Below, piece after piece: positions 25,362 through 26,794 of a stretch of 64,000 bases of DNA. The position numbers and the translations under genes are program-made. Under the pieces are notes generated by a model that made no database searches, was not told the origin of the DNA, and worked only from the letters and a program-made list of their open reading frames with translations. Origin of the DNA: Ralstonia sp. UNC404CL21Col (GTDB lineage Bacteria; Pseudomonadota; Gammaproteobacteria; Burkholderiales; Burkholderiaceae); contig NZ_JIBE01000004.1 of NCBI RefSeq assembly GCF_000620465.1, positions 806,001 to 870,000 on the forward strand, in the 5' to 3' direction. The first letter of the stretch is position 1; the number at the start of each line of letters is the position of its first letter.

Positions 25362-25670
25362 TGCAGGTTCTCCTCAGTCAGATACGTGAACAAAAAACGC
25401 AGCGGCAACCGGTAGCGCTGCGTGAACTGACGATACGGGGGAGGTCTGTGGCGGCGGAATGCACCAGACGTTCTGGCGCAGGCCAGGGGAAACGCGGCAC
25501 GGGAGAAATGGGCCAAGCCGCCCCACGTGCATTTGACGGCGACGGTTGATTGCCATGGCAACGCGCAACGTGGGCTGCCCACAACGCTTCATGCGGCTGC
25601 CAGCCCGTTTGCGCAATCTCCGTTTGCCGGGCTGGCGCGGCCCCGGTAGAGTCTTTCCCCAATGGGTTCA
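25362..25670. other. intergenic stretch upstream of the riboswitch
   Basis: About 310 bp between the divergent exported-protein gene and the riboswitch. No frame with protein-like composition. It must hold the promoters for both directions; I cannot point to a convincing -35/-10 pair. Confidence 0.4.
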
Positions 25671-25680
25671 CACCCAGAGG

Positions 25681-25757
25681 TCTGGGCAAAACCGGAGTGA
25701 TCCGGCGACGCAAAGCTATAGGGACTTCGCTGGACGAAGTCAGCCAGTTGCCCGCCA
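25681..25757 (+). ncRNA. cyclic-di-GMP-I riboswitch (GEMM-I)
   Basis: The GEMM-I plan can be followed base by base. P1 pairs GGGCAA (25684-25689) with TTGCCC (25748-25753). P2 is CCGGA/TCCGG closed by a GTGA tetraloop of GNRA type (25692-25705). The hallmark core GACGCAAAGC follows at 25707-25716, then P3 GACTTCG/CGAAGTC (25723-25741), and the closing CAGCCAGTTGCC. These are the known c-di-GMP contact and docking elements of the class. The start of the GH135-like gene is ~60 bp downstream, so c-di-GMP would gate its expression. Whether binding turns it on or off is not evident. Confidence 0.93.
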
Positions 25758-25758
25758 A

Positions 25759-25775
25759 CCCGCAACGGGAGCGGG
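25759..25775 (+). promoter_or_regulatory. short hairpin after riboswitch, possible expression platform
   Basis: CCCGC (25759-25763) and GCGGG (25771-25775) flank a 7-base loop immediately after P1. There is no T tract, so it is not a plain intrinsic terminator. Another hairpin, CCCAGA/TCTGGG (25673-25686), overlaps the left strand of P1 and would exclude it. Confidence 0.4.
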
Positions 25776-25817
25776 CCTGATGACACACGCAAAGAACGGC
25801 GTGGTCGGGGGCACATC

Positions 25818-26672
25818 ATGAAAACGATACAAACGGGGGGGCGTTCGCCCGCATCCGCCACGCTGGCCGTGGCATCGCAAACGGGCAACGCAAAGCGCAG
25901 GTTCGCGCGGGCCGCCTATGCCGCATTCGCCCTGGTGTCCGGCGCGCTGATGGGCGCATCGCATGCCAGCGCTGAAGGGCTGCTGGTGCCGTCGTACATC
26001 TATCCGTCAGGCACAGGCGCAACGCAGTGGAGTGCGCTGGCCACAGCGGCAACGTCGGTACCCACCACGGTCATCCTCAACCCGAACAGCGGCCCGGGCA
26101 CCACGCAGGATGCCAACTACGTTACCGCCGTCGCCAAGGTCCGTGCCGCAGGCGGCAAGGTGATCGGGTACGTCTCCAGCTCGTACGCCAACCGGTCGTT
26201 GTCGGCCGTGGTGCAGGACATCAACACCTACCAGGCGCTGTACCAGGTCGACGGCTTCTTCATCGACGAGATGACCGCCGACAGCACGACCGCGCACATC
26301 CAGTTCTATCAGTCGGTCTACAACTACATCAAGGGGTTGTCGCCCAACTACACGGTCACAGGCAACCCGGGCACCAATGTGCCGGAGATCTACGCCAGCC
26401 TGCCGGTGGCAGACCAGCTCGTGGTGTTCGAAGACAGCGCCAAGCACTACGCCAGCTATGCGCCGTTGGCGTGGCAGGCCAACTATCCGAAGGCGCGCTT
26501 TGCGCACATCGTCTACGCTGCGTCGGCCACGCAGATGCAAACTTTCGTTCGCAACGCGTCAGGCAAGGGCGCTGCTGCGGTGTTCATCACGAACAAGACG
26601 TTGCCGAACCCGTATGGCGCGCTGCCGAGTTACTGGAGCCAGGAGGTGTCCGCCACGGCCGTTGCCCCGTGA
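25818..26672 (+). CDS. secreted spherulin-4 / GH135-like glycoside hydrolase
   Basis: 284 residues. A signal peptide with an extended N-region ends near SHAS (residue ~51). The mature part is a TIM-barrel of the spherulation-specific family 4 type: LLVPSYIYPSG, TTVILNPNSGPG, GKVIGYVSSSYANR, VDGFFIDEMTAD and TVTGNPGT. The candidate catalytic acids Asp150, Glu151 and Asp206 have the same spacing (0, 1, 56) that I recall for D166/E167/D222 of fungal Sph3, which cleaves GalNAc-containing exopolysaccharide. It is preceded by a c-di-GMP riboswitch, so a biofilm-matrix role is likely. The exact substrate is unknown. Confidence 0.87.
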   Translation: MKTIQTGGRSPASATLAVASQTGNAKRRFARAAYAAFALVSGALMGASHASAEGLLVPSYIYPSGTGATQWSALATAATSVPTTVILNPNSGPGTTQDANYVTAVAKVRAAGGKVIGYVSSSYANRSLSAVVQDINTYQALYQVDGFFIDEMTADSTTAHIQFYQSVYNYIKGLSPNYTVTGNPGTNVPEIYASLPVADQLVVFEDSAKHYASYAPLAWQANYPKARFAHIVYAASATQMQTFVRNASGKGAAAVFITNKTLPNPYGALPSYWSQEVSATAVAP

Positions 26673-26794
26673 CCGCGCGGGCGTGACGCACGCCGCATGT
26701 GCGGGCTGATGCTCCGCACATGCTTTATATTCGGGCCACACCACATCCCCCCTTCGCCGCCTGCCGGCGTTGAGGCAACAACAAGGAGAACCCC

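What the first reader, a model, noticed from the sequence alone, without database searches (positions are those of the whole stretch)
25681..26672. c-di-GMP-I riboswitch controlling a secreted spherulin-4/GH135-like glycosidase
Seen: complete GEMM-I architecture (P1, GTGA tetraloop, GACGCAAAGC core, P3) ~60 bp before the start of an exported protein whose three acidic residues (150, 151, 206) have the Sph3 spacing. Known: GEMM-I binds c-di-GMP; Sph3-type GH135 enzymes cut GalNAc-containing exopolysaccharide. Inferred: the second messenger that drives biofilm formation directly gates a matrix hydrolase, giving a built-in matrix remodelling or dispersal switch. I do not know a described bacterial example.
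Basis: partly seen in the sequence, partly recalled or inferred. Interest (0 to 1): 0.82.

Follow-up and report, generated by a model that had tools for sequence, protein, structure and literature searches.

The report
c-di-GMP riboswitch on Pel-matrix hydrolase
A small RNA sensor for the bacterial biofilm signal c-di-GMP sits in front of the gene for a secreted enzyme that probably cuts the bacterium's own sugar matrix, so the signal that builds a biofilm may also decide directly when the matrix-cutting enzyme is made.

Summary
Window 25675-25755 (+) is a c-di-GMP-I riboswitch (RF01051, 54.5 bits), 62 nt before the ATG of a Spherulin4/GH135-like protein (PF12138, E 5.8e-52) whose D150, E151 and E205 (not 206) align with the Sph3 active site. 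The pair is conserved: 15 of 16 genomes of the genus (Ralstonia) have one of each; the other has neither. Across 398 family genomes, 32 of 34 RF01051 sites found lie directly before this gene. The likely substrate is Pel: all 38 genomes with a strong Spherulin4 hit carry pelG, against 108 of the other 360, and 15 of 62 named loci have pel genes beside it, in three arrangements. The leader has a covarying anti-P1 hairpin and a second hairpin at the ribosome-binding site. Modelling, two decayed aptamers, and a sigma-28-like promoter in Paraburkholderia, Caballeronia and Robbsia (absent in Ralstonia) favour an OFF switch: hydrolase made at low c-di-GMP. Both parts are known kinds; I found no description of the combination in the library searched. 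The main rival is an ON switch for a Pel-processing enzyme.

The parts
25624..25652 (+). weak sigma-70-like promoter candidate TTGCCG-N17-TAGAGT (tentative)
   Evidence: Read by eye; 8 of 12 consensus positions, below the 9 of 12 threshold of the promoter scan, which found none. The TAGAGT word recurs in the Ralstonia leaders printed (one has TTAGAGTG).
25675..25755 (+). c-di-GMP-I (GEMM-I) riboswitch aptamer; P1 strands about 25684-25689 and 25747-25752
   Evidence: RF01051 54.5 bits, E 6.8e-8; only match found in the genome.
25750..25776 (+). anti-P1 hairpin (25750-25755 with 25771-25776), mutually exclusive with P1
   Evidence: Helix 1: 8 pairs in 31 leaders, 94.6% of cells paired, 4 pairs with changes on both sides; shuffle and slide controls were run on helices 1 and 2 together.
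25782..25806 (+). second hairpin, ending directly before the ribosome-binding site
   Evidence: Helix 2: 8 pairs, 88.6% of cells paired, 6 pairs with changes on both sides.
25775..25812 (+). predicted ligand-bound extension: GCC 25775-25777 pairs with GGC 25810-25812, covering part of the Shine-Dalgarno sequence 25807-25811
   Evidence: 31 of 31 leaders keep the three pairs, but they never vary, so there is no covariation evidence; such a helix appears in several folds with P1 enforced.
25818..26672 (+). sph4: Spherulin4/GH135-like glycoside hydrolase, 284 aa, probably secreted; D150, E151, E205 equivalent to the Sph3 active site
25818..25976 (+). N-terminal Sec-type signal peptide (by eye, about residues 1-53)
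   Evidence: Sequence; no predictor was run.
26695..26723 (+). intrinsic-terminator-like hairpin after the gene; suggests a single-gene transcript
   Evidence: 11-pair stem followed by TTTATATTCG; 4 terminator-like sites in the scanned region against a shuffle mean of 1.3 (sd 1.2).

Best explanation
A translational c-di-GMP-I OFF riboswitch controls a secreted GH135-type endo-alpha-1,4-N-acetylgalactosaminidase that acts on the cell's own Pel polysaccharide. Without ligand, the 3' strand of P1 is taken up by an anti-P1 hairpin; the second hairpin stands alone and the ribosome-binding site is relatively free, so the enzyme is made. With c-di-GMP bound, P1 closes, the anti-P1 hairpin opens, and the freed GCC pairs with the GGC of the Shine-Dalgarno region, lowering translation. 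High c-di-GMP (when Pel is made) would thus silence the hydrolase; falling c-di-GMP would release it to trim or loosen the Pel matrix. In Paraburkholderia, Caballeronia and Robbsia the transcript also appears to start from a FliA (sigma-28) promoter, so the enzyme would be made in motile, low-c-di-GMP cells. Shown by computation: the riboswitch, the enzyme family, the conserved pairing, the association with pel, the covarying hairpins and the promoter motif. Inferred: ligand binding in vivo, direction, export, substrate and biological role.
For: Riboswitch and GH135-like enzyme with the active-site triad kept (Asp166/Glu167/Glu222 of Sph3 from PMC10485009 passages). Genus: 15 of 16 genomes have one RF01051 and one PF12138, adjacent; G009 has neither. 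Family: 32 of 34 RF01051 sites found in 398 genomes lie before Spherulin4. Pel: 38 of 38 genomes with a strong Spherulin4 hit have pelG, against 108 of the other 360 (Fisher p 9e-19, not corrected for relatedness); G009 lacks pelG too. 32 of 36 further genomes, reached through 38 of the 62 named loci, have pelG. 15 of 62 named loci have pel genes within the fetched flank, in three arrangements. The window's genome has a pelA-G operon on another contig. Platform: anti-P1 hairpin and second hairpin covary. Direction: Shine-Dalgarno more open in the ligand-free fold in 22 of 31 leaders, less in 3, about equal in 6. Two damaged aptamers (L040; L043/L100) keep the anti-P1 hairpin, Shine-Dalgarno and an open gene, as expected if the unbound state is permissive. 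A sigma-28-like site at or near the aptamer start in 23 of 26 non-Ralstonia leaders (22 of 25 distinct genomes), spacing 11 in 22 of the 23.
Against: No experiment. Differences in Shine-Dalgarno openness are modest (mean 0.51 against 0.41; over a wider start window 0.54 against 0.50), and the pairs proposed to cover it never vary. The outer P1 pair forms in only 16 of 31 leaders. Fungal Sph3 cut re-N-acetylated but not native Pel (PMC9135694), which fits processing before deacetylation better than matrix dispersal. Ralstonia, the window's genus, shows no sigma-28-like site (0 of 15), has no pel gene within the fetched flank of sph4 (10 of 10 loci), and keeps an apparently intact hydrolase domain in PelA (5 of 5 checked), so the enzyme may be partly redundant. 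Seven of 39 strong Spherulin4 loci in the family search lack an intact RF01051 match (two carry relics), and Nitrosomonas, Zoogloea and Comamonadaceae relatives have none before the gene. One search scored only 10 candidates a genome with strict filters, so RF01051 sites elsewhere may have been missed; in the 36 further genomes only 9 of 24 sites lie before Spherulin4. Vibrio Vc1 is an ON switch (PMC4744006, abstract read). pelG also occurs in 108 genomes without Spherulin4.
Confidence: 0.58

Rival explanations
1. ON switch for a Pel-processing enzyme: c-di-GMP raises the hydrolase together with Pel, and the enzyme trims nascent, still acetylated chains in the periplasm or at the cell surface, as proposed for Sph3 in fungal galactosaminogalactan synthesis.
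For: Sph3 prefers fully acetylated polymer and did not release oligosaccharides from native Pel (PMC9135694 and PMC12054363 passages). Sph3 is required for GAG biosynthesis and proposed to prevent clogging (PMC12054363 passage). Genes beside pel also fit synthesis. Vc1 is an ON switch (PMC4744006 abstract).
Against: Modelled Shine-Dalgarno openness points the other way (22 against 3 of 31). Decayed aptamers keep the gene. The sigma-28-like promoter in Paraburkholderia, Caballeronia and Robbsia ties the gene to motility. 108 of 146 pelG genomes in the family search have no Spherulin4 hit, so it is not needed for Pel synthesis in general.
Confidence: 0.27
2. The enzyme acts on foreign GalNAc polymers (fungal galactosaminogalactan, Pel of competitors) rather than own Pel, as a weapon or a feeding enzyme gated by lifestyle.
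For: Characterised GH135 is the fungal Sph3 acting on GAG (PMC12054363 and PMC10485009 passages). Relatives of these bacteria often live with fungi (recalled). Four of 36 further genomes have Spherulin4 but no pelG match (some of them fragmentary MAGs).
Against: Strong co-occurrence and repeated linkage with the cell's own pel operon; joint absence with pelG in G009.
Confidence: 0.09
3. The aptamer is real but irrelevant for expression in this genome, and the enzyme is in effect constitutive.
For: Two relatives have clearly decayed aptamers and four Burkholderia loci have none, so loss is tolerated.
Against: The window's aptamer is complete over all 87 model positions and scores 19.5 bits above the cut-off. 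Conserved core and covarying helices in 31 leaders.
Confidence: 0.05

Closest known systems
c-di-GMP-I (GEMM-I) riboswitch, RF01051
   Same: Full match to the covariance model with GNRA loop, GACGCAAA core and P1/P2/P3; the G before CAAA is kept in 28 of 28 aligned aptamers, which argues against the G20A cGAMP-type change (the change is named in PMC6274999 passages; its placing at this G is recalled).
   Different: The target gene: I found no description of a c-di-GMP riboswitch before a GH135 enzyme in the held library. The platform looks like a translational anti-P1 design; no terminator-like site was found in the leader on the + strand.
GH135 Sph3 of Aspergillus (5c5g, 5d6t)
   Same: Sequence homology (E 1.7e-15) and the D-E...E triad.
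   Different: Bacterial, apparently exported by a signal peptide, co-occurring with pel genes, and under a riboswitch. Substrate and fold not shown.
PelA hydrolase domain (GH166) and other operon-borne matrix hydrolases such as PslG
   Same: Presumed same substrate class as PelA (alpha-1,4-GalNAc/GalN); encoded with or beside the matrix operon in some relatives.
   Different: A separate protein of another GH family, away from the pel operon in Ralstonia, where PelA keeps its own hydrolase domain.
Vc1 riboswitch before gbpA in Vibrio cholerae
   Same: c-di-GMP-I switch before the gene of a protein acting at N-acetylglucosamine surfaces (PMC4744006 abstract).
   Different: Vc1 is an ON switch for an attachment protein; here an OFF switch for a hydrolase is predicted.

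Membership tests
c-di-GMP-I riboswitch (RF01051) | Covariance-model score above the gathering cut-off over the full aptamer | tested here: met
   54.5 bits against 35, model 1-87 of 87
c-di-GMP-I riboswitch (RF01051) | Conserved core and paired P1, P2, P3 | tested here: met
   P2 100% paired and hardly varying, P3 96.8% paired with changes on both sides at 4 of 7 pairs, two inner P1 pairs 31 of 31; the outer P1 pair only 16 of 31
c-di-GMP-I riboswitch (RF01051) | Binds c-di-GMP and changes expression | not testable with these tools
   Needs in-line probing and reporters
c-di-GMP-I riboswitch (RF01051) | Expression platform mutually exclusive with P1 | tested here: met
   Anti-P1 hairpin shares the P1 3' strand and covaries
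Spherulin4 / PF12138 | Profile score above the curated cut-off over the whole domain | tested here: met
   177 bits against 30.2, profile 2-238 of 239
GH135 | Active-site Asp-Glu and Glu of Sph3 | tested here: met
   D150, E151, E205 align with them and are invariant in 32 of 32; Sph3 residues from PMC10485009 passages
GH135 | (beta/alpha)8 barrel | not tested
   Structure prediction switched off; sequence homology to solved barrels only
GH135 | Retaining endo-alpha-1,4-N-acetylgalactosaminidase activity | not testable with these tools
   Needs an enzyme assay
FliA (sigma-28) regulon | TAAAGTTT-N11-GCCGATAA-like promoter (consensus in PMC4866697 passage) | tested here: not met
   Not in Ralstonia, the window's genus (0 of 15). 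Met in 23 of 26 non-Ralstonia leaders.

The most novel reading that the evidence does not exclude
A doubly gated matrix-exit enzyme: in Burkholderiaceae a Pel hydrolase is transcribed (in Paraburkholderia, Caballeronia and Robbsia) by the flagellar sigma factor and translated only when c-di-GMP is low, so that one RNA couples departure from the biofilm to motility. In this family the riboswitch class would be kept mainly for this one gene.
Probability: 0.4. Interest if true: 0.76.

Novelty: new variant of a known kind. Interest (0 to 1): 0.64.

Why it matters
c-di-GMP is known to switch matrix synthesis on through proteins, PelD among them (recalled). A direct RNA gate on an enzyme that cuts the same matrix would close the loop without a transcription factor and make biofilm exit testable with one gene and one RNA. 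It would also give a bacterial GH135 enzyme a likely natural substrate (Pel); the passages read of a 2025 structural paper name only fungal Sph3 as a characterised GH135 member (PMC12054363). The link with flagellar transcription in relatives would join the two halves of the motile-sessile decision at one gene.

Tried and rejected
Replacement hypothesis: PelA beside Spherulin4 in L071 has a degenerate hydrolase domain, so I asked whether Spherulin4 replaces it. I read PelA from 67 loci: 26 from 21 of the 23 non-Ralstonia genomes with a strong Spherulin4 hit, 5 from 5 of 15 Ralstonia genomes, and 36 from 35 of the 108 pelG genomes without Spherulin4. 61 gave a PelA; 6, all in the last group, had none in the stretch. 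By motif (FLDT..D and AFES), Spherulin4 genomes have 20 intact and 11 degenerate copies, the others 13 intact and 17 degenerate. Rejected as a rule. It remains that the PelA divergent from Spherulin4 is of the degenerate, shortened type in all six pairs of the family search that were read (L067-L072; L068 checked), although L067 and L070 keep a glutamate at the aligned site.

Sigma-28 promoter as a general feature: absent in Ralstonia (0 of 15) and in the 3 Oxalobacteraceae-type leaders. Shuffle p was above 0.05 for three of the 23 positive leaders (L109, L097, L114). Flagellin control: 8 of 10 loci (of 14 matches) had a best site scoring 10.5 or more, 2 did not; several of these loci are near-identical and no shuffles were run. 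In the window and its complement 3 sites score 11 or more at spacing 11.

First folding attempt misplaced P1 in some leaders because of a wrong search word; it was redone and only that count is used. In one search the Shine-Dalgarno position was set by pattern and is doubtful for a few leaders (L003, L050).

Decayed aptamers rechecked with permissive Rfam filters: L043 24.9 bits, below the cut-off of 35; L040 and five other Spherulin4 loci no RF01051 match at E up to 1.

No near match among plasmids. Paper searches: searches found no paper; some searches gave listings (14, 15, 31 and 67 show 20 of 43, 23, 27 and 55 papers), read as listings except for the papers named in the report.

Full report
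What is there. Window 25675-25755 (+) is a complete c-di-GMP-I riboswitch (RF01051, 54.5 bits, cut-off 35, E 6.8e-8), the only Rfam match at gathering threshold in the 64 kb and the only RF01051 match found in the 5.09-Mb genome (150 of 338 first-look candidates scored). It ends 62 nt before ORF 25818-26672. The 284-aa product matches Pfam Spherulin4 (E 5.8e-52) and, by sequence, solved Sph3 (5d6t, 5c5g); NCBIfam gave no family. A terminator-like hairpin follows at 26695-26723, and the next gene is a calcium/proton exchanger relative, so the gene is probably transcribed alone.

The enzyme. Sph3 has putative catalytic residues Asp166, Glu167 and Glu222 (PMC10485009, passages read). In the pairwise alignment the letters at the matching places are D150, E151 and E205. 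They are invariant in 32 of 32 sequences from the window and 31 of the named loci. PMC12054363 (passages) prints Asp196/Glu222 for Sph3; that aspartate number differs from PMC10485009, and the spacing fits 166. The N-terminus looks like a signal peptide by eye. A fold could not be predicted.

Conservation of the pair. Fifteen of 16 genomes of the genus have exactly one RF01051 match and exactly one PF12138 match, adjacent by coordinates; the sixteenth, G009, has neither. In 398 genomes of the family, RF01051 was found at 34 sites in 33 genomes (strict filters, at most 10 candidates scored a genome, so a lower bound) and PF12138 at 42 sites in 41 genomes. By coordinates, 32 of the 34 riboswitches lie on the same strand just before a PF12138 gene; the two exceptions are both in G032. 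Of the 42 PF12138 sites, 39 score 153 bits or more and 3 (G039, G134, G385) score 82-98 bits. Of the 39, 32 have the riboswitch, two (G115, G160) have decayed copies, and five have none found (G337, G342, G352, G386, and the second copy in G122). Among named loci (62 loci) the aptamer is before the gene in 10 of 10 Ralstonia-type loci (motif check) and 21 of the other 52 (covariance model R1): Paraburkholderia, Caballeronia, Robbsia, strains labelled Burkholderia, and three Oxalobacteraceae or unclassified Burkholderiales records. Nitrosomonas, Zoogloea, Comamonadaceae and planctomycete loci have none before the gene. R1 was built from such aptamers, so its hits to those members are partly by construction. 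In 36 further genomes (38 of the 62 named loci asked, 2 not held), RF01051 occurs at 24 sites in 14 genomes, of which 9 lie before Spherulin4; Oxalobacteraceae, Zoogloea and planctomycete genomes use the class for other genes too.

Pel. [quoted passage not shown] The window's genome has a pelABCDEFG operon on another contig (L066; pelC and pelE placed by order, without a Pel-specific family hit), with an intact-looking GH166 domain in PelA (5tcb E 1.3e-47). PelG (PF16933) occurs in 146 of 398 family genomes. All 38 genomes with a strong Spherulin4 hit have it; the three with weak hits do not; 108 of the 357 genomes without any Spherulin4 hit have it. Fisher p for 38 of 38 against 108 of 360 is 9e-19, not corrected for shared ancestry. 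G009 lacks PelG as well. Of the 36 further genomes, 32 have PelG. In 15 of 62 named loci pel genes lie within the fetched stretch: divergent from pelA (L103, L105, L106, L108, L109, L112, L118), before pelA on the same strand (Zoogloea L126, L127), and after pelG on the same strand (L133, L136-L139, L144). Three arrangements argue for a functional tie rather than chance neighbourhood. The 10 Ralstonia-type loci show no pel gene in the fetched stretch.

PelA. I asked whether Spherulin4 replaces a lost PelA hydrolase. It does not as a rule: among 61 PelA proteins, Spherulin4 genomes have 20 intact and 11 degenerate copies, genomes without it 13 intact and 17 degenerate, and all 5 Ralstonia genomes checked have both enzymes.

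Expression platform. In 31 leaders aligned without structure the 3' strand of P1 can instead pair with a downstream GCGGGC-type strand (anti-P1 hairpin), and a second hairpin ends next to the Shine-Dalgarno sequence. Together these 16 pairs are formed in 91.6% of cells, with 10 pairs changed on both sides; 0 of 500 shuffles reached the paired percentage, the cells changed on both sides or the covariation score, 1 of 500 reached the number of pairs changed on both sides, and 4 of 500 the number of pair types. Slid versions drop to 25-43% paired. The leaders are related, which these controls correct only in part. In several folds with P1 enforced a GCC-GGC helix over the Shine-Dalgarno region forms; it is possible in 31 of 31 but invariant, so it has no covariation support. 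In a two-state computation the Shine-Dalgarno is more open by over 0.05 without P1 in 22 of 31, less in 3, equal in 6. This points to OFF, weakly. Two damaged aptamers before open genes keep the anti-P1 hairpin and Shine-Dalgarno (L040; L043/L100); RF01051 scores 24.9 bits in L043 and nothing at E up to 1 in L040. This fits a permissive unbound state.

Promoters. In 23 of 26 non-Ralstonia leaders (22 of 25 distinct genomes, L061 and L107 being the same) the best match to TAAAGTTT-N11-GCCGATAA (consensus as printed in PMC4866697, passage) lies at or near the start of the aptamer; spacing is 11 in 22 and 12 in L110, and L094 is offset by 11 bases. Shuffle p was 0.035 or less for 20 of the 23 and higher for L109, L097 and L114. 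The three Oxalobacteraceae-type leaders and all 15 Ralstonia leaders lack it. Flagellin loci of six family genomes served as a control: 8 of 10 had a site of 10.5 or more, including the window's genome (TAAACTTT-N11-ACCGATAA), so Ralstonia appears to have the promoter type but not at this gene. The Ralstonia start may be a weak TTGCCG-N17-TAGAGT, below the scan's threshold.

Reading. Most likely c-di-GMP lowers translation of a secreted Pel hydrolase. The serious rival is an ON switch for a processing enzyme, supported by the preference of Sph3 for acetylated polymer. Neither ligand binding nor activity was tested.

Literature. Searches of the held library found no paper with 'spherulation-specific family 4' and c-di-GMP, none with 'c-di-GMP riboswitch' and 'glycoside hydrolase', none with 'c-di-GMP-I riboswitch' and Burkholderiales. 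The listings (20 of 23, 11 of 11, 4 of 4 and 20 of 55 papers shown) have no title on this pairing; of those papers I saw passages of PMC6335245, PMC8461298 and PMC6274999 and the abstract of PMC4744006. Most subscription papers are missing from the library, so absence from print is not shown.

Noticed in passing
L071:11835-14606; L067-L072; 61 PelA proteins: Two PelA types in Burkholderiaceae: one with an intact-looking GH166 hydrolase motif (FLDTLDS, AFES) and one with a shortened, degenerate hydrolase domain; both kinds occur in one genome in several cases. The shortened type is the one divergent from Spherulin4 in the six pairs read.
   Followed up: partly
L046 and L079 (G032): The only genome of the family search with RF01051 sites not before Spherulin4: two aptamers, one before a protein that looks by eye like an HD-GYP-type protein, one before a small, apparently secreted protein.
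   Followed up: partly
G413:C41:35925-36328 (L160): Zoogloea genome with five c-di-GMP-I sites, two of them divergent and about 240 bp apart.
   Followed up: no
L043:2323-2376 (same as L100:9794-9847) and L040:2335-2420: Decayed aptamers in two genomes of genus g10 (one is Caballeronia grimmiae): one has lost most of P3, the other has changes in the core, while the hairpins and gene after them stay intact.
   Followed up: yes
L146, L147, L152: c-di-GMP-I aptamers before proteins that look by eye like secreted metalloproteases, in two Oxalobacteraceae-type MAGs and a planctomycete.
   Followed up: no
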